Source of the DNA: Candidatus Vecturithrix granuli
Lineage (GTDB): Bacteria > Moduliflexota > Moduliflexia > Moduliflexales > Moduliflexaceae
Assembly (NCBI GenBank): GCA_000739535.1
Contig: DF820471.1
Span: 200,967 to 247,682 of the forward strand
DNA: 46,716 bases
Direction: 5' to 3'
Shown here: in pieces, positions 6,697 through 46,602 of the stretch
Numbering within the stretch: position 1 is the stretch's first letter
Layout of the letters: each line of letters opens with the position of its first letter
Made by a program: the position numbers and the translations under genes
The notes under the pieces: model-generated
Told to the model about the DNA's origin: nothing
The model's database searches: none
What the model saw: the letters and a program-made list of their open reading frames with translations, nothing else

Positions 6697-6745
6697 GGAG
6701 TGCGAAAGCTCTGCTTTCGCTGTCAAAGCAGAGCTTTGACACTCC
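6697..6745. repeat. Double-hairpin palindrome
   Basis: Two short hairpins sit in tandem: GCGAAAGC-tct-GCTTTCGC, then GTCAAAGC-aga-GCTTTGAC. The whole unit, from GGAGTG to CACTCC, is itself nearly palindromic. The design is the same as the core of the family D repeats at 14102 and 28107, with different arm bases. It would fold as a cruciform or as RNA hairpins at the 5' side of the binding-protein gene. Confidence 0.7.
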
Positions 6746-7894: not shown

Positions 7895-7957
7895 TACGCG
7901 GATATAGTGTGAGTGAGACAATCATGAAATCTTTTGTACGTATTGGTGAAAAAAAAT

Positions 7958-8911
7958 ATGGATATTGAACAATTGACCATACGAGCGGCGTGGTATTATT
8001 ATAAAACCGATATGACGCAAGAGGCTATCGCCAAAAAGCTCAATCTCTCGCGCATGAAGGTCGTGCGTTTACTTGAAAAAGCCAAACAGGACGGCATTGT
8101 GAGCGTACACGTCAAAAGTCCTATTAATAACTGCCTCGAAATCGAACAAAAGCTCATTACCACCTTTCAATTAGATGACGCCATGGTTGTGCCTTACGAC
8201 CGCTCCCAGCATGTGAATCAAACGGTGGCGCAGGCGGCGGCGCAATACCTGGAATTACGTTTACGTTCAAATGATCTGCTCGGCATCGGCTGGGGTGATA
8301 CGATCAGCCGCATGGCCGTCTGTTTTAATCTGAATGATGAACGCCGCATTAATGTTGTGACCCTTTCAGGGGGTATTCTCTCGTATGATATTGGCGGGCG
8401 CTTGTCAACGGTGTTTAAAGGTAAGCTCTATGTGATTAACGCGCCGATTATGGCGTCAAGCGTTGAGTTGTGTGAAGCCTTAAAACAAGAGCCGACGATT
8501 AAAGACGCGCTTGAAATGGCGCGGCTGGCGAATTATAGCGTGGTCGGAATTGGCATTCCCGATCGTAACGCCTCTATCGTGAAAGCAGGTTATCTCAGTG
8601 AAGTTGATCTGCAAATGATCAGTTCGCAGGGTGCGGTGGGAGATTTACTCGGGCAATTTTTTGATGAGCAAGGCCGCAAGTTAGACCTTCCCATTCACCG
8701 CCGGCTGATTAATCTCGATATTGAAAAGCTGCGCGGGATGAGCAATGTGATTGTGGCGGCGGGTGGGACGCATAAAGTCAAAGCGATCGTAGCCGCCTTG
8801 CAGCAACGCTATTTTCATACCTTAGTGACCGATGAAGTCACGGCAAGCGAGTTACTTGCGCATATCCACAATAATCCACATTATAAAATTCGTGAAATGA
8901 ACAGGGGATAA
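7958..8911 (+). CDS. lsrR: LsrR-like transcriptional regulator (SorC/DeoR family)
   Basis: A 317-residue regulator with an N-terminal helix-turn-helix ('MTQEAIAKKLNLSRMKVVRLLEKA', broken here as TQEAIAKKL and SRMKVVRLL; about residues 20-45). A C-terminal SorC-type sugar-phosphate-binding domain follows (about 55-315), with 'LGIGWGDTISRMA', 'VVGIGIPDR' and the closing 'VAAGGTHKVKAI'. In enteric bacteria LsrR represses the lsr genes until phospho-AI-2 binds. Here it is the first gene of the same transcript, ending six bases before lsrA, rather than divergent with lsrK. The ATG at 7958 has GGTGA about nine bases upstream; the earlier TTG is rejected. The lsrR name rests on context as well as family, since SorC paralogues are common. 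Confidence 0.85.
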   Translation: MDIEQLTIRAAWYYYKTDMTQEAIAKKLNLSRMKVVRLLEKAKQDGIVSVHVKSPINNCLEIEQKLITTFQLDDAMVVPYDRSQHVNQTVAQAAAQYLELRLRSNDLLGIGWGDTISRMAVCFNLNDERRINVVTLSGGILSYDIGGRLSTVFKGKLYVINAPIMASSVELCEALKQEPTIKDALEMARLANYSVVGIGIPDRNASIVKAGYLSEVDLQMISSQGAVGDLLGQFFDEQGRKLDLPIHRRLINLDIEKLRGMSNVIVAAGGTHKVKAIVAALQQRYFHTLVTDEVTASELLAHIHNNPHYKIREMNRG

Positions 8912-8917
8912 CAGGCT

Positions 8918-10432
8918 ATGCAAAACGGCAGCATTATTGAATTACACAACATGAGCAAAGCGTTTGGCGGGGTTCCGGTTTTGGAAGATGTCAATTTCAC
9001 GTTGCGGCGAGGGATTGTGCATGGATTAATCGGCGGAAATGGAGCCGGAAAATCCACGCTCATGAAAATCCTGTCCGGAATTTTTCAGCCTGATCAGGGT
9101 GAAATTTGGATCAACGGGAAAAAGACCCACTTAAAAAATCCGGCCGATGCCCATAGCAAAGGCATTTACCTTGTGCCCCAGGAACCGACCATTTTCCCTT
9201 TTCTGACCGTTGAAGAAAATATTCTGATCGGTATGAACGTGAATAAAAGAATCTACCGTGAAAAACTGCAAATCCTGATGGATACCTTGAAATGTGATTT
9301 CACTCTGGGACAAATCGGCGCGGATTTAACCATTGCCAAGCAGCAGCTTGTAGGACTCTTAAAAGGCTTAATTCGTGAAAGCGATGTGATCATCCTGGAT
9401 GAACCGACTTCCGCCCTGACTTCCAGAGAAGTAACCGCCCTGTTTCAGGCTGTGAAAAAACTCGTGCGCGAAAAAAATATCGCCATTGTCTATATTACCC
9501 ATCGCCTACAGGAGTTGTTTGACATCACGGATGAGGTGACTGTGCTGAAAAATGGAAGAATCGTTTCTCAGGGAACAACCGCTGAATACACGTTGGAACA
9601 GATTATTCAGATGATGGTGCCGAAGGTCAGTAAGCAGGAGGTTGAAACCGCAGAAATCGAGCTTCCGCAGCAAGCGCGACAGGTGAATACTCACCGAGAG
9701 AACGGCTATATTTTAGAAGTGGAACATCTGTGGGGCAAAGGTTTTCGCGATGTCTCTCTGCAATTGAAAAAAGGAGAAATTCTGGGACTGACCGGTGTGG
9801 TAGGCGCGGGACGCACAGAATTCGCTGAAGCCCTGTTTGGCATTACGAAAAAAGAATCCGGCGCGATCACGCTGAACGGGCAAAAAGTAGAGATTCACAG
9901 CCCGCGTGCCGCCATTGATTTGGGATTGGTGTATGTTCCTGAAGATCGGCACTTGCACGGAGGATTTTTAGAAGCCACGATTCAGGAAAATATCAGCGCT
10001 TCGATTCTCTATCGCTTGTTTCGCATCTTTCTGCGGGGAAAAAAGGAAAAACAGATCTCGCAGGAATTTATTCGTATGTTGAATATCAAGACTACGGGAG
10101 ATGACCAGAAATTTACCTATCTTTCCGGCGGGAATCAGCAAAAAGTGGTGTTGGGGAAATGGCTGGCTTCTACTCCGAAAGTAATTATCCTGGATGAACC
10201 GACGCGCGGAATTGACGCCAATGCACGCAAAGAGATTTACGCCAATATCAAAAAACTGGCTCAGGAAGGAATTGGCGTCATCTTAATCTCTTCCGATTTT
10301 GAAGAGATCGTGACGTTGAGCGACAGAGTAGTCATTATGTATAGCGAACGCATGGTGGCTGAATTAGATGCTTCCGATATTACCCTGGAAAACATTACGT
10401 ATGCATCATTTGGATATGCAAAGGCGGCGTAG
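8918..10432 (+). CDS. lsrA: AI-2 import ATP-binding protein LsrA
   Basis: A 504-residue double ATPase of the sugar-importer type. The first half has Walker A 'GGNGAGKST' (about residues 39-47) and 'IILDEPTSAL'. The second half has the degenerate 'GVVGAGRTE' loop, the ABC signature 'LSGGNQQK' and 'IILDEPTRGID'. The stretch 'GIYLVPQEP' is also present in E. coli LsrA and distinguishes it from ribose and xylose ATPases. LsrA powers the LsrC/LsrD channel that imports AI-2. The gene follows the regulator by six bases and precedes lsrC by two, so it is tightly operonic. Substrate assignment is strengthened by lsrB, lsrK and lsrF downstream. Confidence 0.93.
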   Translation: MQNGSIIELHNMSKAFGGVPVLEDVNFTLRRGIVHGLIGGNGAGKSTLMKILSGIFQPDQGEIWINGKKTHLKNPADAHSKGIYLVPQEPTIFPFLTVEENILIGMNVNKRIYREKLQILMDTLKCDFTLGQIGADLTIAKQQLVGLLKGLIRESDVIILDEPTSALTSREVTALFQAVKKLVREKNIAIVYITHRLQELFDITDEVTVLKNGRIVSQGTTAEYTLEQIIQMMVPKVSKQEVETAEIELPQQARQVNTHRENGYILEVEHLWGKGFRDVSLQLKKGEILGLTGVVGAGRTEFAEALFGITKKESGAITLNGQKVEIHSPRAAIDLGLVYVPEDRHLHGGFLEATIQENISASILYRLFRIFLRGKKEKQISQEFIRMLNIKTTGDDQKFTYLSGGNQQKVVLGKWLASTPKVIILDEPTRGIDANARKEIYANIKKLAQEGIGVILISSDFEEIVTLSDRVVIMYSERMVAELDASDITLENITYASFGYAKAA

Positions 10433-10434
10433 GT

Positions 10435-11475
10435 ATGAAAAAGATGCTCACAAATTTCATTCTCAAGAAACCTGAAGTACTGACCATTACCTTTATTGTG
10501 TTGTATTTTCTAGGGATGGGCGTCATTAATCCTGCGTTTCTTGCGCTGGATACGCTGATCAGAATCCTGTTTAACGGCGCGATGTTATTTGTGATCACAA
10601 TGGGCATTGCCGGCGTCCTGATTACCCGCAATATTGATGTCTCGGTCGGCAGCCTGCTCGGCCTTTCCGCAACTTTTGGCGCAACTTATCTGTTGACGCC
10701 CAATCCATCTATCGCTTTGTTTTTGTTGATCACGCTCGGTACAGGAGTGCTTGGCGGCCTGTTTAACGGAATCGGGGTGGCTTATGCCGGCGTACCTTCA
10801 ATTATCATGACATTAGGTACTATGGCGATGTTTCGAGGCATTCTGACGCTTTACACCGGCGGAAGTTGGATTGATACGGTTCCGGAGTGGTATCTCAATT
10901 TTTCACGCGGGGAAATTTTCGGCCTTTTTTACCCGATCTGGCTGATTGTGCTCTTTCTGGTGATTTTATGGATATTTTACAACAAAATTACCTGGGGACG
11001 CTATCTGTATGCCACCGGCAACAGCGAGGAGGGCGCGAGATTGCAAGGGATTCCTGTGAAAGTGGTAAAGCTTTCTGCCTTTGCCATCTCCGGGTTATTT
11101 GCCGGGATCGGCGCGTTGATTTTTATTTCGCAAATCGGCACGATTCCCACGCAAGCCGGATTTGGTATGGAAACGCAAGCCATTGCGGCGGCGGTGATCG
11201 GCGGAATCAGTTTAATGGGCGGGAGCGGCAATATCCAGGGTGCGGCGTTAGGAGCGCTGCTGTTGGAAACGATCAAATATTCGCTGGTCTATTTCAGAGT
11301 GCCAGGTTATTGGAATGATGTGTTTTCAGGGTTCTTGCTGCTGCTGATTGTGGTGCTGACCTCGCGCATCCAGATTTTTCTGAAAAAAGAAAAGGAACGC
11401 GAAAAAGAAGAACGCGCCGATGTCGCGGCGATCAAGCCTGAACTCAATGTCATGCAAGAACGCGTCAACGAATAG
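10435..11475 (+). CDS. lsrC: AI-2 import permease LsrC
   Basis: A 346-residue polytopic inner-membrane protein with 8-10 hydrophobic helices, of the branched-chain/ribose permease family. 'ITRNIDVSVGSLLGL' and 'AIAAAVIGGISLMGGSGNIQGA' are the conserved EAA-like and pore-forming stretches. They closely parallel E. coli LsrC ('LTRNIDVSVGSI', 'GGISLLGGSG'). The C-terminal 30 residues are highly charged. It follows lsrA after two bases, with only a weak GG-rich ribosome site, which suggests translational coupling. It pairs with LsrD to form the channel. LsrC versus LsrD was assigned by gene order and similarity. Confidence 0.92.
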   Translation: MKKMLTNFILKKPEVLTITFIVLYFLGMGVINPAFLALDTLIRILFNGAMLFVITMGIAGVLITRNIDVSVGSLLGLSATFGATYLLTPNPSIALFLLITLGTGVLGGLFNGIGVAYAGVPSIIMTLGTMAMFRGILTLYTGGSWIDTVPEWYLNFSRGEIFGLFYPIWLIVLFLVILWIFYNKITWGRYLYATGNSEEGARLQGIPVKVVKLSAFAISGLFAGIGALIFISQIGTIPTQAGFGMETQAIAAAVIGGISLMGGSGNIQGAALGALLLETIKYSLVYFRVPGYWNDVFSGFLLLLIVVLTSRIQIFLKKEKEREKEERADVAAIKPELNVMQERVNE

Positions 11476-11495
11476 ATGTAAAAGGAAAGAGATGT

Positions 11496-12512
11496 ATGAA
11501 CCAACTCAAAAAACTCTACAACTGGCAAATGGCTCTGGTCTGTTTAATCGGACTGGAACTGGTGATATTCGGCGTGATTAACCCGCGTTTTGTCAATGTA
11601 TATAACTTGTTATACAGCATCGGCGATTTTCTGTATATTGCGATTGCCGCGCTTCCCATGACAATGATTATTGTATCGGGCGGGATTGATATTTCGATTG
11701 GCTCGATCATGGGGCTGTCAGCGGTCATCACCGGTCTGGTTTGGCTTGGAACGACGAATATCTGGCTGGCGGTACTGGCCGGATTGTTCGGCGGCGTCAT
11801 AGCCGGGGGCATCAACGGCGTATTAATAGTGATTACCCAGGTTAACCCGTTAGTCATTACCCTCGGAAGCTCGTTTCTCTACGCCGGGGCAGCGTTAACG
11901 CTGTCAGGACTTGCCGGAACATCCGGATTTGAAGGGATCGGCGGATTTCCCGATGGCTTTGTCAATATTGCGAATGGCACGCTGTTCAGCATCCCCAATC
12001 CGGTCTGGATTCTGCTCTTCCTCGTTATCATTTTCTACCTCGTATTACATCATTCGAAATTCGGACGCTATTTATTTCTGATCGGAATGAATTCGGCGGC
12101 GGCCAGATATACCGGCGTCAAAGTCGAAAAATTGCTGGTGGTGAATTACATGATTTCAGGGTTGGGCGGGGCGTTAGCCGGGATCTTGCTCACCTCATAT
12201 TTCACGTCTGCTCGTTCTGATCTTGGCGCTGATGCACCTCTGACCGTGATTACCTGCGCGGTATTGGGAGGGGCGAATATCTACGGCGGCGATGGCCGGA
12301 TTGTGGGCGCGGTGCTGGCAAGCCTGCTCATCGGCTATCTGAAATACGGCCTGCAAATGGTCAATATCACCGCCCATCAAACCAGTGTGTTTCTGGGGCT
12401 TTTATTAATCATGTCAATTTCCGGGGTCTTCTTCTGGCGCAAATATAACGATCTGTATAAAAACAGGAAAGCCTTTACACGGTTACGAACTCAACCGGCT
12501 GAAGACGTTTGA
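11496..12512 (+). CDS. lsrD: AI-2 import permease LsrD
   Basis: A 338-residue multi-spanning permease of the same family as LsrC, forming the second half of the channel. It shows 'IIVSGGIDISIGSIMGLSAV' (residue window about 55-75) and 'AVLGGANIYGGDGRIVGAVLA', the matching conserved loops of this subfamily. The ATG has AGGA upstream and lies 20 bases after lsrC. After this gene the operon is interrupted by a 192-base inverted-repeat element before lsrB. If that element ends transcription, lsrB would need its own promoter; a palindrome sits just before lsrB. Confidence 0.92.
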   Translation: MNQLKKLYNWQMALVCLIGLELVIFGVINPRFVNVYNLLYSIGDFLYIAIAALPMTMIIVSGGIDISIGSIMGLSAVITGLVWLGTTNIWLAVLAGLFGGVIAGGINGVLIVITQVNPLVITLGSSFLYAGAALTLSGLAGTSGFEGIGGFPDGFVNIANGTLFSIPNPVWILLFLVIIFYLVLHHSKFGRYLFLIGMNSAAARYTGVKVEKLLVVNYMISGLGGALAGILLTSYFTSARSDLGADAPLTVITCAVLGGANIYGGDGRIVGAVLASLLIGYLKYGLQMVNITAHQTSVFLGLLLIMSISGVFFWRKYNDLYKNRKAFTRLRTQPAEDV

Positions 12513-12539
12513 TGATGAAATTCACTATCTCATGTCTCA

Positions 12540-12731
12540 TGTTACGCAGCCCTGTTTTTTACCGCGTAGCGGTTGAAGTATTGTAGAAAAATCGTTCCGG
12601 TTTTCGGGGTCACTTATTCCGTAGGAGTTGAACTCTGCTGTTTCTGCAACCGCTCTGCGGTAAGAGATCCAGGGGACGACATGCCTGCTACAATACTCTA
12701 ACCGCTACGCGGTAAAAACCTCCGCGTAACA
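12540..12731. repeat. 192-bp inverted-repeat element inside the lsr cluster
   Basis: The ends are long imperfect inverted repeats. The left arm (12540-12586) contains ACCGCGTAGCGGTT and AGTATTGTAG. The right arm (12688-12731) contains CTACAATACT and AACCGCTACGCGGT and ends GCGTAACA, matching the left TGTTACGC. There is no coding capacity. It is best read as a MITE-like non-autonomous element inserted between lsrD and lsrB. Confidence 0.75.
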
Positions 12732-12903
12732 GGAGTTCTTTAAAATGCAGGGCCAGGAAAACATGGGGGTTTTCGGAACCGAAGAACATCTCATGCGTTC
12801 TAAAAGTCCAAAAGGGGGGATGTTGAGGGAAGCGCAAAAAGGAGGAAAGATGAAATACTGTATTACAATCGAGCAAGCCAATCAGGAGATAATCTACGTC
12901 TTT

Positions 12904-12942
12904 GGATTAACGATGAAAATAAAATTTTCATTATGTAATCCG
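12904..12942 (+). promoter_or_regulatory. Palindrome upstream of lsrB
   Basis: ATGAAAAT (12913-12920), three bases, then ATTTTCAT (12924-12931), with outer arms GGATTA and TAATCC extending the symmetry. It ends 29 bases before the lsrB start. The half-site TGAAAA/TTTTCA also forms the palindrome downstream of the lsr promoter at 7882, so it may be a second regulator site giving lsrB separate control. A leader hairpin is the alternative. Confidence 0.5.
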
Positions 12943-12971
12943 TAAGAGGATATCAGCAAGGAGTAATTATC

Positions 12972-14024
12972 ATGAAAAAATTGATGATTCTGATGTTAAC
13001 AGGTTTGTTAGTTCTGTCGTTGGTTGCCGGGGCCTCGGCTGAAAAGAAGTTTAAAATTGCCTTTGTGCCCAAAATTATCGGCAACACCTTCTTTGAAGTT
13101 GCCGGCGCCAATGCGGTAGCTATGGGCGAGCAGTTAGGCGTTGAAGTGAAGTATGATGGGCCGACCGAAGCTTCAGTCGCCGGACAGGTAAAATTCATCA
13201 ATACCTTTGTGAATATGGGCTATGACGCTATCGTCGTTTCCGCTCTGGATCCGCAGGGATTGAATCAGGCGTTGAAACGGGCAATCGATCGCGGCGTGGT
13301 TGTGGTTACGTGGGATTCTGACGTTGACCCGGATTATCGCACATTTTATGTCAACCAGGGAACACCAGACCTTCTCGGAAGACAATTGGTTGATATGGTA
13401 GTCAACCAGCTCGGCACCTGGCACGGCCCGTTAAAAGTGGCGTTCCATTATTCCTCTCCTACCGTCACCGACCAGAATTCCTGGGTAAATTTTGCCAAGA
13501 AGATTATTGCGGAAGAATATCCTGACTGGGAAATCGTGACGACCCAATATTCAGATATGGATTTCCCCAAAGCCGTATCGGTGGGCGAACAGATTCTCAA
13601 AACCTATCCTGATGTGAACGCGATTATCTGCCCAGATTCCACTGCTTTTCCAGGACAGGCCAAAGCGGTTGAAAACCTCAATATGATTGGTAAAGTCGCG
13701 GTTGTCGGTTTCACCACCCCGAGCACGATCAAACAGTATATTGAACGCGGCACAGTGTTGCAAGGCGGTCTGTGGGATTGCGGCGTACAGGGCGCGGCCG
13801 GCGTATATGTCGCCTATAAGCTGTTAAACGGTGAAAAAATTGAGGTCGGTACTCCTTTTGAAATTCCTAACATTCCCGGACAATTCAATGTGGTGCCGAA
13901 CAAATTGCAGGGCGGCGAGATGTATGAACGCGAAAAATATGAAGGCGTGACAGACAATGGCATCGTTCTGCTGCCGGAAAGATTGGTATTTACCCGTTAT
14001 AACATTGACAAATACAATTTCTAA
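12972..14024 (+). CDS. lsrB: AI-2-binding periplasmic protein LsrB
   Basis: A 350-residue periplasmic binding protein with a signal peptide (cleavage likely after 'ASA', residue 23). It aligns along its whole length with enteric LsrB: 'YDGPTEASVAGQV', 'VSALDPQGL', 'TWDSDVDPD', 'SSPTVTDQN' and the final 'LLPERLVFTRYNIDKYNF'. Known AI-2 contacts are recognisable as Lys34, Asp115, Asp167, Gln168 and Pro221. The position that is Ala in confirmed LsrB proteins appears to be Ser223 here, in 'CPDSTAF'. LsrB captures AI-2 in the periplasm for LsrACD and can also serve as a chemotaxis ligand carrier. AAGGAG lies eight bases before the ATG. A strong terminator-like hairpin follows. Confidence 0.95.
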   Translation: MKKLMILMLTGLLVLSLVAGASAEKKFKIAFVPKIIGNTFFEVAGANAVAMGEQLGVEVKYDGPTEASVAGQVKFINTFVNMGYDAIVVSALDPQGLNQALKRAIDRGVVVVTWDSDVDPDYRTFYVNQGTPDLLGRQLVDMVVNQLGTWHGPLKVAFHYSSPTVTDQNSWVNFAKKIIAEEYPDWEIVTTQYSDMDFPKAVSVGEQILKTYPDVNAIICPDSTAFPGQAKAVENLNMIGKVAVVGFTTPSTIKQYIERGTVLQGGLWDCGVQGAAGVYVAYKLLNGEKIEVGTPFEIPNIPGQFNVVPNKLQGGEMYEREKYEGVTDNGIVLLPERLVFTRYNIDKYNF

Positions 14025-14051
14025 ACACGCAGCCAGAAATTTTCCAGCAGG

Positions 14052-14084
14052 AAAAACCGGGTTTCTTCAAGAAACCCGGTTTTT
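14052..14084 (+). terminator. Terminator-like hairpin after lsrB
   Basis: A perfect 14-bp stem, AAAAACCGGGTTTC / GAAACCCGGTTTTT, with a TTCAA loop. The T-rich right arm fits a Rho-independent terminator on either strand. It belongs to a recurrent hairpin type in this window (see also 16381, 17431, 26840, 39559, 44540). Confidence 0.75.
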
Positions 14085-14089
14085 AACTA

Positions 14090-14219
14090 TTTCACAGGAG
14101 ATGTCATGAGCTAAGGCTCACCCGGCGCAATGAAAATGAGAGATGTACTGCGAAACTCCAGTTTCGCGCATCATTGACAGCCGCGAAACTGGAGTTTCGC
14201 GGTACATTTTCACAGGAGA
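14090..14219. repeat. Family D repeat flanked by a 12-bp direct repeat (copy 1)
   Basis: The exact sequence TTTCACAGGAGA occurs at 14090-14101 and again at 14208-14219. Between them is a unit containing ATG-AGC-TAA, then CTCACCCGGCGCAATGAAAAT, then two hairpins GCGAAAC-tcca-GTTTCGC and GCGAAAC-tgga-GTTTCGC with complementary loops. A very similar copy in the opposite orientation lies at 28097-28222. The duplicated AGGAG is a Shine-Dalgarno sequence. The direct repeats look like a target-site duplication. Confidence 0.7.
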
Positions 14220-14308
14220 ATCTCCATCACGGTCACCGCAGAGGAAAGAATGTGAATTGACAATCCATTCTTTTTTGTGCGCTGAGCGTGAGGGCAGAAA
14301 CACACGCT

Positions 14309-15871
14309 ATGAAATATGTGATGGCCCTCGATGCAGGCACCGGGAGCGGCCGGTGCGTCATTTTTGATGAACAGGGAAATCAGGCGGCGGTTTCTCAACA
14401 AGAATGGACGCATAATACGGATCCGCGCTTTCCCGGTTCAATGGAATTTGATGTTGAAAAAAACTGGAATATTCTTGCAGCGTGCATTCAAAGTGCGTTG
14501 CGCCAGGCCGGAATTTCGGCGCGGGATATTGCCGGAATCAGCGCGACCAGTATGCGCGAAGGCATTGTGCTGTACGATGGGGCCGGCAAAGAACTGTGGG
14601 CCTGCGCCAACGTTGATTCGCGGGCAGCGCAGGAAGTGATCGAATTGACCCAACTGGAAGAGGGATTAGAAGAAAAGATTTATCGCATTTCCGGCCAGAC
14701 CTTCTCCTTAGGCGCAATCCCGCGCATCCTGTGGGTCAAAAAACATTTTCCGGCCCTGTATGACGCCGCCCGTACTGTCAATATGCTCAGTGATTGGGTG
14801 TTGTATAAATTGACCGGCGAATTGGTTGTGGATCCGTCAAATGGCTGTACTACAGGACTCTTTGATTTGCACACGCGTCAATGGAAACCTGAAATTGCCG
14901 CCTGGTGCGGTTTACGTGACGACATTTTTCCGCCAGTGCACGAAGCCGGAACAGTGATCGGCAAAGTGCATCGCCAGGCAGCCGAGTTCACGGGTTTACA
15001 AGAAGGAACGCCGGTCATTATCAGCGGGGGCGATGCCCAATTAGGGGCGGTAGGAGTCAACGCCGTGTTTCCCGGTCAGACCTCCGTCTTTGGCGGAAGT
15101 TTCTGGCAGCAAGAAGTAAATATGGGAGCGGTGCAGGTAGATTCCGAATGCCGCATCCGCGTGAATTGCCATAGCGTCCCCAATCTCTGGCAAATGGAAG
15201 GCATTGCATTTTTCCCGGGCTTAGTTGCGCGTTGGTTTCGCGATACCTTTTGCCAGGAAGAACTACGCATGGCGCGAGCTACTGGCTTAGATGCATATTA
15301 TCTTCTGGAGCAGCAGGCCGCTCGGGTGCCGGCCGGGGCCTATGGCATTGTCTGTACTTTTTCGGATGTAATGAATTATCTCAAATGGAAACATGCAGCC
15401 CCATCGTTTATCAATCTTGATATTTCTGCCTCGGAAAAATCCGGAAAAGCCGCTTTGTTCAGAGCGATTCAGGAAAATGCGGCCTATGTGGCCTATGGCA
15501 ACCTCAAGGCGATTGCATCCAATACGGGAACATTTCCTCAAGAAGTCATCTTTGCCGGCGGCGCCTCAAAAGGAAATCTCTGGTGCCAGATTGTGACGGA
15601 TGTTTTCGGCGTCCCCGTGAAAGTTCCGGTCGTGAAAGAAGCCAGCGCCTTAGGATCGGCCCTGTGTGCCGCTGTCGGCGTCGGCATCTTTGCATCAATT
15701 GCAGAGGCGGCGCAGGCAACCGTGCAATGGGAAACCTCATACACTCCTGATGCGGCGGCCCATCAACTCTATCAGGAACATTTTGAACGCTGGCGCGCAG
15801 TCTATGCCAAACAGATGGAGCTTGTTGCTGCCAACCTGACCTCTCCAATGTGGAGCGCTCCAGGGGTATAA
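14309..15871 (+). CDS. lsrK: Autoinducer-2 kinase LsrK
   Basis: A 520-residue FGGY-family carbohydrate kinase that matches LsrK throughout. It opens with 'MALDAGTGSGRCVIFD' (phosphate-binding), then 'PGSMEFDVEKNW', 'SMREGIVLY' and 'WACANVDSRAAQEV'. 'GGDAQLGAVG' holds the catalytic Asp region, and 'FAGGASKGNLW' is the ATP-site GGxSK motif. It ends 'MWSAPGV', like the enteric enzyme. LsrK phosphorylates imported AI-2 in the cytoplasm, trapping it and making the inducer for LsrR. I start it at the ATG at 14309; a GTG at 14288 would add seven residues and neither has a strong ribosome site. It is separated from lsrB by a terminator and a family D repeat, so a separate promoter or read-through is needed. 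Confidence 0.94.
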   Translation: MKYVMALDAGTGSGRCVIFDEQGNQAAVSQQEWTHNTDPRFPGSMEFDVEKNWNILAACIQSALRQAGISARDIAGISATSMREGIVLYDGAGKELWACANVDSRAAQEVIELTQLEEGLEEKIYRISGQTFSLGAIPRILWVKKHFPALYDAARTVNMLSDWVLYKLTGELVVDPSNGCTTGLFDLHTRQWKPEIAAWCGLRDDIFPPVHEAGTVIGKVHRQAAEFTGLQEGTPVIISGGDAQLGAVGVNAVFPGQTSVFGGSFWQQEVNMGAVQVDSECRIRVNCHSVPNLWQMEGIAFFPGLVARWFRDTFCQEELRMARATGLDAYYLLEQQAARVPAGAYGIVCTFSDVMNYLKWKHAAPSFINLDISASEKSGKAALFRAIQENAAYVAYGNLKAIASNTGTFPQEVIFAGGASKGNLWCQIVTDVFGVPVKVPVVKEASALGSALCAAVGVGIFASIAEAAQATVQWETSYTPDAAAHQLYQEHFERWRAVYAKQMELVAANLTSPMWSAPGV

Positions 15872-15936: not shown

Positions 15937-16002
15937 TTCGTGTCTCGACTTCGCTCGACAACCGCCCAGTCACTTAGCGGAGTCGAAGTGACATGACATA
16001 AA
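15937..16002. repeat. Degenerate 'CGACTTCGCTC' repeat between lsrK and the cupin gene
   Basis: CTCGACTTCGCTCGA is followed, about 20 bases on, by an inverted partial copy (AGCGGAGTCGAAG), flanked by GTCATTCGTG and GTGACATGAC. It shares the core found in the elements at 17576, 42606, 46298 and 46640. The whole 161-base gap is non-coding apart from the AGGAGG serving the cupin gene. Confidence 0.5.
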
Positions 16003-16375: not shown

Positions 16376-16380
16376 CGATA

Positions 16381-16412
16381 AAAACCGAGTTTTTTCAAAA
16401 AACTCGGTTTTT
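16381..16412 (+). terminator. Terminator-like hairpin after the cupin gene
   Basis: Stem AAAACCGAGTTTTTT / AAAACTCGGTTTTT with a short CAA loop and T-rich exit. It lies between the cupin gene and lsrF, so it should reduce lsrF expression unless read through. Confidence 0.65.
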
Positions 16413-17382: not shown

Positions 17383-17500
17383 GTCAAGTTATACTTGAGA
17401 TCGCATAAATTTGTGAATTTGAGCAAGGCGAGAAGCCGGGTTTTTTGCGAAAAACCCGGCTTCTTTGGTTTCACAAATATACCCGGCCTCAAGTATATAA
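17383..17500. repeat. Inverted repeat with a terminator hairpin nested inside
   Basis: Outer arms ATACTTGAG (17391-17399) and CTCAAGTAT (17488-17496), plus AAATTTGTGAA and TTTCACAAATAT, enclose a perfect hairpin AGAAGCCGGGTTTTT / AAAAACCCGGCTTCT (17431-17464). The outer unit is a MITE-like element and the inner one matches the recurrent AACCGGG-type hairpin. It probably ends both the lsr transcript and the convergent MFS transcript. Confidence 0.6.
17431..17464. terminator. Bidirectional terminator-like hairpin after lsrF
   Basis: A 15-bp stem AGAAGCCGGGTTTTT / AAAAACCCGGCTTCT with a TGCG loop, lying between lsrF and the convergent MFS gene. The symmetrical T and A tracts suit termination from either side. 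Confidence 0.65.
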
Positions 17501-17575
17501 GCGATGGGTTTGTAGTTCTCTCTTTAGCAAGTTCTTTCGGATGATGGCGGACTACGGACCCATCACTCATGCAGG

Positions 17576-17687
17576 CAGGGCTGTTAAGTTATGTAGATGT
17601 TTGTCGTCTCGACTTCGCTCGATGACCGGAACACCGCACGTTGAGCGAAGTCGAGACGCTATATTTTGCGCGAACTTAACAGCCTTG
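17576..17687. repeat. Family A inverted-repeat element (copy at 17.6 kb)
   Basis: The ends CAGGGCTGTTAAGTT and AACTTAACAGCCTTG are inverted copies. Inside is a stem built from TCTCGACTTCGCTCGA and GAGCGAAGTCGAGACG around GACCGGAACACCGCACG. The element at 42606-42718 has the same length and near-identical interior, so this is a dispersed non-autonomous element. Confidence 0.75.
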
Positions 17688-26839: not shown

Positions 26840-26873
26840 AAAAAACCGGGTTTCTTGAAGAAACCCGGTTTTT
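26840..26873. terminator. Bidirectional terminator between TolC-family and aminotransferase genes
   Basis: AAAAAACCGGGTTTCTT / AAGAAACCCGGTTTTT with a one-base loop, followed by a degenerate second copy (AAAAAACCTGGTTTTT). Genes on both sides converge on it. Confidence 0.8.
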
Positions 26874-26903: not shown

Positions 26904-28088
26904 TCAAGCCATATATTTCGTTAACACCTTCTTAAACCCCGGCATGGAATTGATGATGGTCTGATCGTCCACGCAGTAAGCAATCCGAATATGGCCTGGC
27001 CCGCCAAACGAGCTTCCGGGCACGGTCAAAATCAATTCATCTTGTAAAGCCTTCACGAATTCCGTATCGTCAGCAATAGGAGTTTTGAGAAAGAGATAAA
27101 AGGCCCCAACGGGTTTTGTCACTTCATAGCCGCATTGCGCTAATCCCTCGCATAACAAATCTCGTTTCGCCTTGTAGATCGAAACATCCACCTTTTTCCC
27201 CTGAACTTTAGCCACCACGCGTTGCATCATGGCCGGAGCATTGACAAAACCGAGGGTGCGGTTACACATAATTGCCCCGGCAAGAATGTTGTCTCGATGA
27301 GCGGCTTTCGGATTGACCGCTAAAAATCCCAGGCGTTCCCCCGGAATTGAGAGGACTTTTGAATAGGAAGTCGCTAAAATGCTCTCATCATAATATTTCA
27401 ACACGCTTGGTACTTCAATGCCATCATATACAATATCACGGTACGGTTCGTCGGTGAGCAGGTAAATCGTTTTGCCATGCTGCTGGCTTTTTTCGCGCAG
27501 CAATGTTCCCAACGCGGCAATGCTTTCCTGCGAATACACCTGTCCGGTCGGGTTATTGGGGGAATTAATCAACATCACTTTTGTTCTGGGGGTGATGGCG
27601 TTGGCAATTGCATCCAGATTCAGCGTAAAATCAGGGTTTGTCGGAACAGTTTTCAATACTCCGCCATGATTATCAGCATAGGCCCCGTATTCTACAAAAA
27701 ACGGTTTAGGACAGAGCACTTCATCCCCCGGATCTAAAAGCGTCTTCAAAATCACATTCAACGCTCCGGCAGCGCCGCAGGTAATAATCAACTCGTCGGC
27801 CGTGATGTTGATGTCATGTTCCTGACAGAGATACGCGGCGATTTCTTCCCGTACAAACGGGTACCCCGCATTGGTCATATAGCCGTGCAAGCCGGGGCGA
27901 GGATCTTGCGCCACCTCAATCAGAGCTTGCTTGAACTCTGTCGGAGGTTCAGGATAGGGATTGCCCAGGGTGAAATCAAATACCTTATCGTTTCCGTATT
28001 GGGCTTTTAATTGCTGTCCCTGATCGAACATCTTCCGTATCCATGAGGCGCTGACGATTTTTTCTTCAATTTTTTTAGCAACTGACAT
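26904..28088 (-). CDS. PLP-dependent class I/II aminotransferase (aspartate-aminotransferase-like)
   Basis: A 394-residue cytoplasmic fold-type I PLP enzyme. Visible motifs are 'GAAGALNVILKTLL' (cofactor phosphate), 'INSPNNPTGQVYS' (Asn that contacts PLP), 'LTDEPYRDIVYD' (Asp and Tyr at the ring) and 'SYSKVLSIPGERLG', holding the Schiff-base lysine and phosphate-binding Arg. The N-terminal 'FDFTLGNPYPEPP' is typical of this subgroup, which acts on amino acids such as aspartate or alanine. The exact substrate cannot be told from sequence. Its ribosome site, AGGAG, is part of the family D repeat copy lying just upstream. It is convergent with the TolC-family gene. Confidence 0.9.
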   Translation of the reverse strand: MSVAKKIEEKIVSASWIRKMFDQGQQLKAQYGNDKVFDFTLGNPYPEPPTEFKQALIEVAQDPRPGLHGYMTNAGYPFVREEIAAYLCQEHDINITADELIITCGAAGALNVILKTLLDPGDEVLCPKPFFVEYGAYADNHGGVLKTVPTNPDFTLNLDAIANAITPRTKVMLINSPNNPTGQVYSQESIAALGTLLREKSQQHGKTIYLLTDEPYRDIVYDGIEVPSVLKYYDESILATSYSKVLSIPGERLGFLAVNPKAAHRDNILAGAIMCNRTLGFVNAPAMMQRVVAKVQGKKVDVSIYKAKRDLLCEGLAQCGYEVTKPVGAFYLFLKTPIADDTEFVKALQDELILTVPGSSFGGPGHIRIAYCVDDQTIINSMPGFKKVLTKYMA

Positions 28089-28096
28089 GTACTCTT

Positions 28097-28222
28097 CTCC
28101 TATGAAAATGTAGCGCGAAACTCCAGTTTCGCGGCTGTCAAAGATGCGCGAAACTGGAGTTTCGCGCTACATCTGATTTTCATTGCGTCGGGTGAGCGTC
28201 AGCTCATGTAAACTCCTACGAA
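28097..28222. repeat. Family D repeat flanked by direct repeats (copy 2, inverted)
   Basis: Read on the minus strand, it carries TTCGTAGGAG at one side and TTCATAGGAG at the other (9 of 10 match), 116 bases apart. Between them are ATG-AGC-TGA, CTCACCCGACGCAATGAAAAT and the hairpins GCGAAAC-tcca-GTTTCGC and GCGAAAC-tgga-GTTTCGC. It is about nine-tenths identical to the copy at 14090-14219. The near flank provides the AGGAG ribosome site of the aminotransferase gene that starts at 28088. Confidence 0.7.
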
Positions 28223-32169: not shown

Positions 32170-33783
32170 TCAGGCTATAATCAATGCACGGATATGAATA
32201 ATTTTCTCCCTGAGTGTTTTATCATTGGCTTGAGCTTGCTCAACTTTCCGACACGCATACATGACTGTCGTATGATCGCGTCCGCCAAAATATCTTACAA
32301 TGTCTGACAGCGACAGATTCGTTAATTCACGCGCCAGATACATGGCGATTTGACGAGGTAAAGCAAGTTTCCGGCTGCGCGTTGAGGATTTCATCGAAGA
32401 GAGGTCAACCTGATAATGATTTGCCACCACTTGTTGAACTAACTCAACCGTAATTTTGCGCGGCGTGGTATCAAACAGGTCATACAAGACTTTCTGAGCT
32501 AATTCTAAAGTGATCTGTTGCTGAGCGAAGGTTGAATAGGCCCGTATTTTCGCTAAACAGCCTTCGAGTTCCCGAATAGTCGAATGAATTTTTTTGGCGA
32601 TATACGCGGCGACATCATCCGGCAAGACGATCTGTTGAGAAGCCGCTTTCTTTTTGAGAATTTCAATGCGCATTTCCAAATCCGGCGCTTGAATATCGGC
32701 AATCAGACCCCATTCAAAACGCGAACGTAATTGTTCAGCAATTGTCGGAATTTTTTTGGGCGGGCAATCACTGGTCAGAATAATCTGCTTGCGAGCCTGA
32801 TACAAAGTATTAAACGTATGAAAAAATTCCTCTTGCGTTCGCTCTTTTCTGGCGATAAATTGGATATCATCCACTAATAATAAGTCAATATTGCGATACT
32901 TCTCTCGAAATCGCGCCATTCGATCTTCACGAATCGAAAGAACCATCTCATTCATAAATTGTTCGGCAGATAAATACAGGATTTTCGTCTTAGGCGCCAG
33001 GTTCGAAAGGTGGTTGCCGATCGCGTGGAGTAAATGGGTCTTGCCTAATCCCACGCCGCCATAAATGAATAAAGGATTATAATTCGCCGCCATCTGAGCC
33101 GCCACAGACAGGGCAGCATCGTGTGCAAGGCGATTACTATCCCCGACAACATAGGAATCAAAGGTGTATGCCGGATTTAATTCCCGTAAAACCTGATGTT
33201 GCTGAGACAAGGGAGGGTCAGGATTCGTATTTTTGGTCGTATCAGAACGCGGAAAAGACCTGTCGCTGCTTAGAGATGCAAGAATGTCGTGTCCTTGCAC
33301 GCGGGAGATAAAATCTCGCCTGGGAGCAATCCGTTCAGCCCAGGGTTGGGCGGGCGCTTCCATCGAATTCGTTGTTTTCGTCAATCGGTCAGGTTGAGCA
33401 GCTACCCGCACCTTCGACAAAGAGCCTGCGTCTTCAATCTCAAGCGCGCCAACCTCTCGATGCGTCTGCGATGGTGTCACCATAGTGGTTCGTTTTCTGG
33501 GGATATTTTCCGTTTCAGGGACAGCAGCAGCATGAACAGCGTTCTCCATCACCACAAAAAAGATTTCCGGTTGAAAACCGAGCGTTTCCGTAAGTGTATC
33601 AACAATCACATTGACATAGTGTTCGCCCAGCCAATACACAAATACATCGTCAGGCACGCCGATATTGACTTTTTTCTGGTTCATTGAAAGCATCTGCGTT
33701 GGCCTGATCCAGGTATTAAAGCTGGGGCGATTAATCCGTTTTTCCAGTTTCGCTAAAACTTCTCCCCACATGGTTGTTTGCAT
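32170..33783 (-). CDS. dnaA: Chromosomal replication initiator DnaA
   Basis: A 537-residue DnaA. Domain I (1-80) begins 'MQTTMWGEVLAKLEKRI'. A long, unstructured, charged linker (about 82-202) is about twice the usual length. The AAA+ domain has 'FVVGD'-type sequences, here 'YTFDSYVVGDSNRLAHDA', Walker A 'GGVGLGKT' (242-249), Walker B 'LLVDDIQFI' and sensor motifs. The C-terminal domain IV ends with the DnaA-box-binding signature 'GRDHTTVMYACRKVE'. It binds the nearby boxes and melts the origin. The ATG at 33783 was chosen because the GTG at 33828 lies inside a DnaA box. dnaN, recF or gyrB are not adjacent. Confidence 0.97.
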   Translation of the reverse strand: MQTTMWGEVLAKLEKRINRPSFNTWIRPTQMLSMNQKKVNIGVPDDVFVYWLGEHYVNVIVDTLTETLGFQPEIFFVVMENAVHAAAVPETENIPRKRTTMVTPSQTHREVGALEIEDAGSLSKVRVAAQPDRLTKTTNSMEAPAQPWAERIAPRRDFISRVQGHDILASLSSDRSFPRSDTTKNTNPDPPLSQQHQVLRELNPAYTFDSYVVGDSNRLAHDAALSVAAQMAANYNPLFIYGGVGLGKTHLLHAIGNHLSNLAPKTKILYLSAEQFMNEMVLSIREDRMARFREKYRNIDLLLVDDIQFIARKERTQEEFFHTFNTLYQARKQIILTSDCPPKKIPTIAEQLRSRFEWGLIADIQAPDLEMRIEILKKKAASQQIVLPDDVAAYIAKKIHSTIRELEGCLAKIRAYSTFAQQQITLELAQKVLYDLFDTTPRKITVELVQQVVANHYQVDLSSMKSSTRSRKLALPRQIAMYLARELTNLSLSDIVRYFGGRDHTTVMYACRKVEQAQANDKTLREKIIHIRALIIA

Positions 33784-34344
33784 GATTCTTTCTGTAAAAC
33801 TAAGGTTGATTTTGAAAAAGTTATCCACATTTGTGGATAAGTGATTAACTAATGTATTTTCAGGGACTTTTGACCTTTTCTCACAAAGTTATCCACATCT
33901 TGCTGTGAAAAACTTTTTATTTTCAATTACTTAACAGAAAAACTGTAAATTGGAAAAAACAAGAATGCAAGTTTTTTTCATAAAAATTTTCTATCTCTTG
34001 TGATTATGAATAGTTGAGAAATTGAGAATTTCTGTGCAAAAGTTTTACGTTTGTTAATTGATTTTTGTGTTTGACTCTCTCTGGCTAAAATTCCGGCGTA
34101 AAGTGATTGACAAATTCTCCTGAGCAATTTATTGTCAAAAGCAGAATTTACAAAAAATACTTTTTTTCAATGTAGAATATTTCAGAAAAATATTTGCAGG
34201 AATATCTGAGTTTTCGAAAAATATGTATGAGTAACCCAAAAGGGTTGAGTATTCTTGTCAAGAATATAGTTCAGAAGACTTCTGAAGAACGACTGTTACG
34301 GGTTCTCCGGCTAACCGGCAATCTATAATTGGGGGGAATGCACG
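33784..34344. other. AT-rich gap with DnaA boxes: candidate replication origin
   Basis: Three perfect DnaA boxes are present: TTATCCACA at 33821-33829, its inverted copy TGTGGATAA at 33832-33840 (together a 20-base palindrome with a two-base centre) and TTATCCACA at 33889-33897. AT-rich DNA of about 350 bases follows (33900-34250), with several poly-A/T tracts suited to unwinding. The boxes overlap the dnaA leader, so they may also autoregulate dnaA. This is the typical origin pattern, although no other replication gene is nearby. Confidence 0.65.
34233..34318 (+). promoter_or_regulatory. Four successive small palindromes in the leader of the DUF697/SHOCT gene
   Basis: In order: AACCCaaaaGGGTT (34233-34246), TATTCTTGtCAAGAATA (34250-34266), TTCAGAAGaCTTCTGAA (34270-34286) and CCGGctaaCCGG (34307-34318). 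The gene starts 26 bases later at 34345, with a GGGGGG ribosome site. The row could be protein binding sites or a structured RNA leader. I could not match it to a known riboswitch. Confidence 0.5.
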
Positions 34345-39545: not shown

Positions 39546-39558
39546 GGAACTGAGTATA

Positions 39559-39589
39559 GCAACCGGGTTTTTGAGAAAAACCCGGTTGC
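39559..39589. terminator. Terminator-like hairpin between sugar transferase and pgsW
   Basis: Stem GCAACCGGGTTTTT / AAAAACCCGGTTGC with a GAG loop, between two convergent genes. It belongs to the recurrent AACCGGG family. Confidence 0.75.
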
Positions 39590-39607
39590 TTGCATGTCAG
39601 GTTTCTC

Positions 39608-42534: not shown

Positions 42535-42746
42535 TTACCCACCCCTAACCCCTCCGAGGAGGGGAATCTGAGATCGGTACGGACACAAATTCCCCTCCTC
42601 GGAGGTAGGGTTGTTAAGTTCTACGGATGTTTGTCATCTCGACTTCGCTCGATGACCGGAATACCGCACGTCGAGCGAAGTCGAGACGGGCATGTTTTAC
42701 AAGAAATTAACAACCCTGCTCTTCGGAGGGGTAGGGGTGAGTAAAG
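42535..42746. repeat. Family C inverted repeat with a nested family A element
   Basis: The outer ends ACCCACCCCTAACCCCTCC (left) and GGAGGGGTAGGGGTGAG (right) are inverted copies. Between them the family A element (42606-42718) interrupts the repeat at GGAGGTAGGG. It lies in the gap before the dipeptidase gene and upstream of pgsB. Confidence 0.65.
42606..42718. repeat. Family A inverted-repeat element (copy at 42.6 kb)
   Basis: The ends AGGGTTGTTAAGTT and AAATTAACAACCCTG are inverted, with the same interior as the 17576 copy: TCTCGACTTCGCTCGA, GACCGGAATACCGCACG and GAGCGAAGTCGAGACG. It is inserted inside a family C repeat. Confidence 0.75.
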
Positions 42747-44539: not shown

Positions 44540-44577
44540 TGAAAAACCAGGTTTCTCGAAGAAACCTGGTTTTTCAG
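44540..44577. terminator. Terminator-like hairpin between the two dipeptidase genes
   Basis: CTGAAAAACCAGGTTTC / GAAACCTGGTTTTTCAG with a five-base loop. It is a 17-bp perfect stem and a member of the recurrent hairpin family. It should partly separate the two paralogues. Confidence 0.75.
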
Positions 44578-46297: not shown

Positions 46298-46407
46298 AGT
46301 GGTTAAATAGTAAGTGATGCCCGCTCGTTGAGCGAAGTCGAAACGAGCCGCTCACAGTTCCCTTCGACTTCGCTCAGGGAACGCATCACTTACCATTTAA
46401 CCACTAC
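46298..46407. repeat. Family B inverted-repeat element (complete copy)
   Basis: Ends AGTGGTTAAATAGTAAGTGATGC (about 46299-46320) and GCATCACTTACCATTTAACCACT are inverted. The interior is two stems, TCGTTGAGCGAAGTCGAAACGA and TTCCCTTCGACTTCGCTCAGGGAA. It lies upstream of the second dipeptidase gene. Confidence 0.7.
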
Positions 46408-46437
46408 CGCAATATCTTCTTATTCCCTTCCTGGGAG

Positions 46438-46602
46438 CAGGGCTGTTAAGTTCTACCCCCTCCGTCCCCTGCAAGCGCAGGGCTGTCAAGTTCTACCCCC
46501 TCAATCCCCCGCAAGCGGGGGAGGTCGATCCGTTTCCCCCCGCTTGCGCGGGGAACAAAAGGGGGGGTCACAACTTCTCCCCGCGAGAACTTAACAACCC
46601 TG
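46438..46602. repeat. Family A element with duplicated left end, nested in a family C repeat
   Basis: CAGGGCTGTTAAGTTCTACC (46438-46457) and a second CAGGGCTGTCAAGTTCTACC (46478-46497) face one right end, GAACTTAACAACCCTG. The outside sequence (CTTCCTGGGAG, and CTCCTGGGAGGGGTAAGGGTGGG at the right) is family C, so this is another insertion into a repeat. Confidence 0.65.

What the first reader, a model, noticed from the sequence alone, without database searches (positions are those of the whole stretch)
14090..14219. Repeat that duplicates a Shine-Dalgarno sequence at its ends
An exact 12-base direct repeat, TTTCACAGGAGA, flanks a 106-base unit with two mirror hairpins. A second copy at 28097-28222 is flanked by different direct repeats, TTCRTAGGAG. 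The flanks differ between copies but both contain AGGAG, which looks like insertion into ribosome binding sites with target duplication. This would let the element insert upstream of a gene without destroying its translation; at 28088 the flank is the ribosome site of an aminotransferase gene.
Basis: partly seen in the sequence, partly recalled or inferred. Interest (0 to 1): 0.72.

Follow-up and report, generated by a model that had tools for sequence, protein, structure and literature searches.

The report
Hairpin repeats carrying a ribosome-binding site
The two marked stretches belong to a family of about 200 dispersed hairpin repeats, found in this bacterium and not in its sequenced relatives, which usually end in a ribosome-binding site placed just before an unrelated gene, so the repeat can sit in front of a gene and still leave it translatable.

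Summary
The repeat is real and far from unique. Its core, two inverted palindromes GTA(G/C)C-GCGAAACTCCAGTTTCGC ... GCGAAACTGGAGTTTCGC-GCTAC, matches a test pattern 455 times in this 8.4-Mb Modulibacteria (KSB3) genome, roughly 200 elements; none was found in 29 other genomes. It has the architecture of a REPIN (head-to-head dimer of GTAG-type REPs). A RAYT transposase gene about 190 kb from copy A is flanked by closely related, not identical, REPs.

The "12-base target duplication" is not one. Across 65 copies the freely variable base of the flanks agrees between left and right ends no more often than chance (19 seen, 19.6 expected). Both flanks follow one consensus, TTTTCANAGGAG, and the gene-side AGGAG behaves as part of the element.

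The interesting part is position. 62 of 88 array-terminal copies have this AGGAG 3-14 nt before the start codon of an open frame of at least 80 codons (20.6% for other AGGAGs), with normal Shine-Dalgarno spacing, before unrelated genes. Other hairpin families sit in the same SD-to-SD frame, sometimes in tandem.

Best reading: a REPIN-like family whose module ends in a ribosome-binding site, a new variant of a known kind. Insertion chemistry and any regulatory role are unproven.

The parts
14090..14219 (+). Copy A of the L1-P1 module, from left TTTCACAGGAGA to right TTTCACAGGAGA
   Evidence: Sequence; whole-genome matches
14096..14100 (+). Left AGGAG (Shine-Dalgarno-like) of copy A
   Evidence: Sequence; family alignment
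14102..14139 (+). 5' half L1 of copy A: ATG at 14106, short hairpin TGAGC-TAAG-GCTCA at 14107-14120, then ...AATGAAAATGA
   Evidence: Sequence; 104 exact L1 pattern matches in this genome, 0 in three relatives
14145..14168 (+). First REP of copy A (GTACT-GCGAAACTCCAGTTTCGCG)
   Evidence: Inverted repeat I10; 455 pattern matches in the genome
14182..14207 (-). Second, inverted REP of copy A (CGCGAAACTGGAGTTTCGCGGTACAT)
   Evidence: Inverted repeat I10
14207..14218 (+). 3' tail TTTTCACAGGAG of copy A; its AGGAG (14214-14218) is 90 nt before the lsrK start, not at SD distance
28095..28222 (-). Copy B of the L1-P1 module
   Evidence: Sequence; inverted repeats I1 and I2
28213..28217 (-). Left AGGAG of copy B
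   Evidence: Sequence
28108..28172 (-). REP dimer of copy B, a perfect 26-bp inverted repeat
   Evidence: Inverted repeat I8; RNA fold z -6.65
28097..28108 (-). 3' tail TTTTCATAGGAG of copy B; AGGAG at 28097-28101, 8 nt before the start codon
   Evidence: Sequence; family alignment
26904..28088 (-). Aminotransferase gene whose Shine-Dalgarno is the 3' end of copy B
   Evidence: NF005305 / PRK06836, 574 bits
14309..15871 (+). Autoinducer-2 kinase LsrK gene downstream of copy A
   Evidence: NF008187 / PRK10939, 796 bits

Best explanation
The unit is a non-autonomous REPIN-like element: a head-to-head dimer of GTAG/GTAC-type REPs, usually with a 5' half (L1) and nearly always with a fixed 3' tail, TTTTCANAGGAG. 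The tail is part of the repeating module and supplies a Shine-Dalgarno sequence 7 nt from the hairpin foot. It probably spreads through single-stranded hairpins cut and joined by a RAYT (Y1-type tyrosine transposase), without target-site duplication. Copies that join upstream of genes so that their terminal AGGAG falls at normal SD distance are tolerated because translation is kept. A further module can then join at the SD junction, so arrays build up as AGGAG-module-AGGAG-module-AGGAG-gene, and the direct repeats seen at the two ends are the shared module ends. Shown here: the family, its consensus, the lack of left/right correlation, the gene-side SD bias, tandem arrays and unrelated downstream genes. 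Inferred: RAYT as mover, the SD as part of the transferred unit, and tolerance rather than regulation as the reason for the position.
For: 455 palindrome matches against 3 for the reversed control, none in seven relatives. GTAG-type feet outside an inverted pair, mostly GTAGC or GTACC with GCTAC. No left/right match of the variable base, 19 of 65 against 19.6 expected. Right NAGGAG co-inherited in close pairs while the following bases are not. L2 subfamily with its own right end, 5/7 against 6/71, p 0.0004, noticed before it was tested. Gene-side AGGAG at SD distance in 62/88 against 20.6%. Base before AGGAG unlike that of native SDs (p 5e-6) at equal spacing (p 0.95); AGGAG enriched among SD types, 39/56 against 242/625. 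A RAYT gene at C13:26145-26768 flanked by related REPs.
Against: No REP identical to P1 flanks any transposase gene found. Co-inheritance of the right SD is only moderately significant, and a same-loop test is weak (p 0.05-0.14). In P1 copies without L1 or L2 the left border has no consistent AGGAG, so one simple insertion rule does not cover all copies. Three orthologues in a relative have an SD at about the same spacing without the element, which a native-SD model also predicts. The copies read were mostly chosen by similarity hits.
Confidence: 0.62

Rival explanations
1. Target-selective insertion: the REPIN ends at TTTTCA and inserts exactly 5' of existing Shine-Dalgarno sequences. AGGAG is the host gene's own SD and there is no duplication; the left AGGAG is an SD left from an earlier insertion.
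For: SD-to-ATG spacing equals that of native genes. Three orthologues without the element have an SD at about the same spacing. Published TnpA-REP enzymes can cut at CA (PMC8266576), and TTTTCA ends in CA.
Against: The base before AGGAG is not native-like (p 5e-6). AGGAG is over-represented against other SD types (p 1e-5). Right NAGGAG is partly co-inherited with the unit.
Confidence: 0.25
2. A regulatory 5' leader: the hairpin next to the SD controls translation or mRNA stability of a set of genes and is kept for that.
For: Strong hairpin 7 nt from the SD at a fixed distance (z -6.65 and -7.63); SD-proximal position.
Against: 68 downstream proteins match 126 different Pfam families, the commonest in only 4 proteins. 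A mismatched hairpin foot (GTACC with GCTAC) is as common as the paired form, 34 against 33. Tandem arrays, copies away from genes, absence from relatives, no Rfam match.
Confidence: 0.1
3. Insertion into ribosome sites with target-site duplication.
For: Exact 12-base repeat at copy A; six of 65 copies have identical 12-mers at both ends; one SD position correlates left-to-right (p 0.0004).
Against: The variable base matches 19 of 65 against 19.6 expected; young copies mismatch; the correlating position is partly due to neighbours in arrays.
Confidence: 0.03

Closest known systems
REPINs (REP doublets forming hairpins; Bertels and Rainey 2011, PMC3116915)
   Same: Two inverted short palindromes with a spacer, forming one long hairpin; hundreds of copies in extragenic DNA; singles, pairs and tandem clusters that include flanking sequence.
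   Different: Here the element runs on into a fixed SD-bearing tail and often a structured 5' half, and its position is tied to the start of the downstream gene; the cognate RAYT is not identified.
GTAG-tagged REP head-to-head dimers (PMC3733652)
   Same: GTAG termini outside the pair; short palindromic stems. A. variabilis GTAG-15 dimers are reported inside a palindrome ...TGAAA--TTTCA..., much like the frame here.
   Different: In the species analysed there, same-strand REPs lie near the 3' end of the upstream gene at varying distance from the downstream gene; here the element abuts the downstream start.
REPtrons / RAYT (TnpA-REP) transposases (PMC8266576)
   Same: A gene for a REP-associated tyrosine transposase with related REPs on both sides.
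   Different: Its REPs are GTACCGCGAACCTCCCGGTTCGCGG, not P1; activity on P1 is unknown.
Mobile promoters (discussed in PMC8049555)
   Same: A short repeat that would carry an expression signal to unrelated genes.
   Different: The signal here is a ribosome-binding site, not a promoter.

Membership tests
REPIN | Two REP sequences in inverse orientation that can pair into one hairpin | tested here: met
REPIN | High copy number in one genome, mostly extragenic | tested here: met
   455 pattern matches; mostly just upstream of open frames in the sample
REPIN | REP sequence shared with the flanks of a RAYT gene of the same genome | tested here: inconclusive
   RAYT at C13:26145 is flanked by related but not identical REPs; no Y1 gene found with exact P1 flanks
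GTAG REP | GTAG tetranucleotide at the foot of the palindrome, outside in head-to-head dimers | tested here: met
   3' REP: mostly GCTAC, which is GTAGC on the other strand; 5' REP: GTAG and GTAC about equal
RAYT (for the C13:26145 protein) | Match to the REP-associated tyrosine transposase model | tested here: inconclusive
   NF047646 E 1.5e-20, 73.6 bits against a cut-off of 80; Pfam Y1_Tnp above its cut-off
MITE or IS-derived element with target-site duplication | Flanking direct repeats that vary between loci but match within a locus | tested here: not met
   19 of 65 matches against 19.6 expected
Known RNA family (Rfam) | Match to a curated covariance model | tested here: not met
   No match in the window at gathering thresholds
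RAYT-mobilised element | Cleavage and transfer of the REP single strand by the transposase | not testable with these tools
   Needs biochemistry

The most novel reading that the evidence does not exclude
A modular system in which several unrelated hairpin (REP) families have adopted one chassis, SD-ATGAGC-hairpin-TGAAA-[payload]-TTTCA-N-SD, that concatenates SD to SD. In effect this would be a transposable ribosome-binding site that rewrites the 5' leaders of many genes in a genome.
Probability: 0.3. Interest if true: 0.72.

Novelty: new variant of a known kind. Interest (0 to 1): 0.52.

Why it matters
REP/REPIN elements are usually discussed as extragenic and often 3' of genes. A family that carries its own translation-initiation signal would explain how such elements can settle in a sensitive part of a transcript without harm, and would give a natural way for 5' leaders to be replaced in bulk. 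It links the cut-site preference of RAYT enzymes to the Shine-Dalgarno motif in a testable way.

Tried and rejected
Target duplication: tested by left/right correlation and rejected as the general rule. A conserved leader peptide after ATGAGC: rejected, because the frame stops after 2 codons in 25 of about 70 copies and varies in the rest. A regulon: no shared function among 68 downstream proteins. Known RNA family: none. Phage origin: no match in phage records. Coupling between the REP foot (GTAG/GTAC) and neighbouring bases as a guide/cleavage-site rule: no association. Empty sites in the KSB3 relative G001: at copy A the intergenic DNA does not align, copy B has no close orthologue (best about 30% identity), and three further orthologues are not clean empty sites.

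Full report
Observation. The direct repeat TTTCACAGGAGA is at 14090-14101 and 14208-14219 with 106 bases between. Inside are two palindromes that are also inverse copies of each other. The second copy, on the - strand, spans about 28095-28222. Its gene-side AGGAG (28097-28101) is 8 nt from the ATG of a PRK06836-type aminotransferase. In copy A the corresponding AGGAG is 90 nt from the ATG of lsrK.

Host. The nearest relative found by protein search is a candidate division KSB3 (Modulibacteria) MAG, PDSJ01000026, with 79% DNA identity in lsrB. The held genome has 21 contigs and 8.38 Mb. 'Candidatus Vecturithrix granuli' was deposited under 21 accessions, DF820463-DF820483 (PMC4312070), so it may be that genome; this is an inference from the count, not a test.

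Family. The palindrome GCGAAACT(SS)AGTTTCGC with up to 2 mismatches matches 455 times, about two per element, against 3 for the reversed pattern. It is absent from seven relatives, and the unit is absent by BLAST from the 29 other genomes of a 30-genome search. I read about 1.5 Mb of the genome in stretches around copies and along contig C13 and extracted 133 sites. Most stretches were chosen because BLAST or pattern hits lay there, so the sample leans towards well-preserved copies.

Anatomy. The core, P1, is GTA(G/C)C-GCGAAACTCCAGTTTCGC-(about 15 nt)-GCGAAACTGGAGTTTCGC-GCTAC, followed at once by ATTTTCANAGGAG. Most copies also have a 5' half, L1: NAGGAG-TTGTC-ATGAGC-nnnn-GCTCACCCGRCRCAATGAAAAT. 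L1 has 104 exact-pattern matches in the genome, none in three relatives and none for the reversed control. A second 5' half, L2 (TTTTGGCAAACGCACCACGGCGAAT), occurs in 7 sampled copies, and 22 complete dimers have neither. Tandem arrays with a period near 117 bp share one AGGAG between neighbours.

No target duplication. In 65 copies with both ends readable, the freely variable base before AGGAG agrees left-to-right in 19, with 19.6 expected by permutation. One other position (-4) correlates (p 0.0004), partly through neighbours in arrays. In pairs of copies nearly identical inside, the left spacer next to ATGAGC is shared (0 of 5000 permutations), the left TTTTCA is not, the right NAGGAG is (p 0.003-0.012), and the bases after the right AGGAG are not. 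So the module appears to run from about the left AGGAG to the right AGGAG. The L2 subfamily has an unusual right end, CAGG(G/A), in 5/7 copies against 6/71 (p 0.0004); this was noticed before it was tested. A same-loop test was weak (p 0.05-0.14).

Position. Of 88 copies not followed by another module, 62 have a start codon of an open frame of at least 80 codons 3-14 nt after AGGAG; 507 of 2465 other AGGAGs do. Spacing equals that of native genes (p 0.95), but the base before AGGAG does not (A 34%, T 34% against A 60%, T 7%; p 5e-6), nor do the two bases after it (p 0.002-0.004). AGGAG is enriched among SD types: 39/56 against 242/625 (p 1e-5). These points favour an SD carried by the element over a native SD, but not decisively. 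TTTCANAGGAG occurs 292 times in this genome against 14 for the reversed pattern, and 17, 39 and 32 times in three relatives.

Other hairpins in the same frame. Hairpins with quite different sequences (for example GAAATTCC...GGAATTTC, ACAAGGATT, CCGGACAAGGCTGTCCGG, GCGTTTACTACGAAC) also follow L1 and also end in TTTCANAGGAG. This resembles the report that A. variabilis GTAG-15 dimers sit inside a palindrome ...TGAAA--TTTCA... (PMC3733652).

Mover. Twelve Y1-transposase stretches were found. One, at C13:26145-26768, matches NF047646 REP-associated tyrosine transposase (E 1.5e-20, under the curated cut-off). It is flanked on both sides by REPs GTACCGCGAACCTCCCGGTTCGCGG, close to P1 but not the same. 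Published TnpA-REP enzymes cut single-stranded REPs at CT or CA, chosen through the GTAG guide (PMC8266576), which would suit the CA of TTTTCA; I found no foot/cut-site coupling in the copies.

Function. The RNA would form a hairpin of about 26 pairs, z -6.65 and -7.63, but the foot pair is as often mismatched as paired. The downstream proteins fall in 126 Pfam families. I therefore favour tolerance of an SD-bearing mobile element over a regulon. In the relative, three orthologous genes without the element have an SD at about the same spacing, which insertion just before native SDs would also give; that rival stays open. The lsrB-lsrK gap of the relative lacks the element.

Verdict. A genuine REPIN-like family with an unusual, SD-bearing end; new variant of a known kind. 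I found no paper describing REP dimers with a built-in Shine-Dalgarno sequence in the held open-access library, which is incomplete. How it inserts, which enzyme moves it and whether it affects expression remain open.

Noticed in passing
window 32170-33897: DnaA gene on the - strand (TIGR00362, 543 bits) with three exact DnaA boxes (TTATCCACA) at 33821-33897 next to its start: a likely replication origin.
   Followed up: partly
window 7934-15871: An lsr-type autoinducer-2 uptake operon: LsrR-, LsrA-, LsrC-, LsrD-, LsrB- and LsrK-like genes; copy A sits between lsrB and lsrK.
   Followed up: partly
window 14052-14084, 16380-16412, 17432-17464, 26841-26873, 39558-39590, 44542-44574: Another hairpin family (AAAAACCGGGTTTCTTCAAGAAACCCGGTTTTT and variants), six copies in the window, terminator-like, often just after genes.
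   Followed up: no
window 15942-15970, 17573-17658, 42603-42688, 46321-46389: A palindromic repeat family with TCTCGACTTCGCTCGA...TCGAGCGAAGTCGAGA; two copies are 90% identical over 86 bases.
   Followed up: no
window 46437-46516: A 40-base unit in direct tandem, second copy 90% identical.
   Followed up: no
window 6697-6745 and L103 (G000:C18:825743-825979): A hairpin GTGCGAAAGCTCTGCTTT in the window resembles the REP-like hairpins (GCGAAAGCTCTGCTTTCGC) flanking a second Y1-transposase gene: possibly another REP/RAYT pair in this genome.
   Followed up: no
L105/L106 (G000:C13:26145-26768): RAYT gene flanked on both sides by pairs of REPs GTACCGCGAACCTCCCGGTTCGCGG.
   Followed up: partly
L034, L045, L054, L061, L066, L071: Other hairpin families unrelated in sequence to P1 sit in the same L1...TTTCANAGGAG frame, sometimes alternating with P1 in arrays.
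   Followed up: partly
window 12556-12718: A 31-base inverted repeat (94% complementary) with 101 bases between the arms, between the lsrD- and lsrB-like genes.
   Followed up: no
L024, L026, L074, L076, L080, L088: Several P1 copies end in runs of N, so assembly gaps fall inside these repeats and the true copy number may be higher.
   Followed up: no
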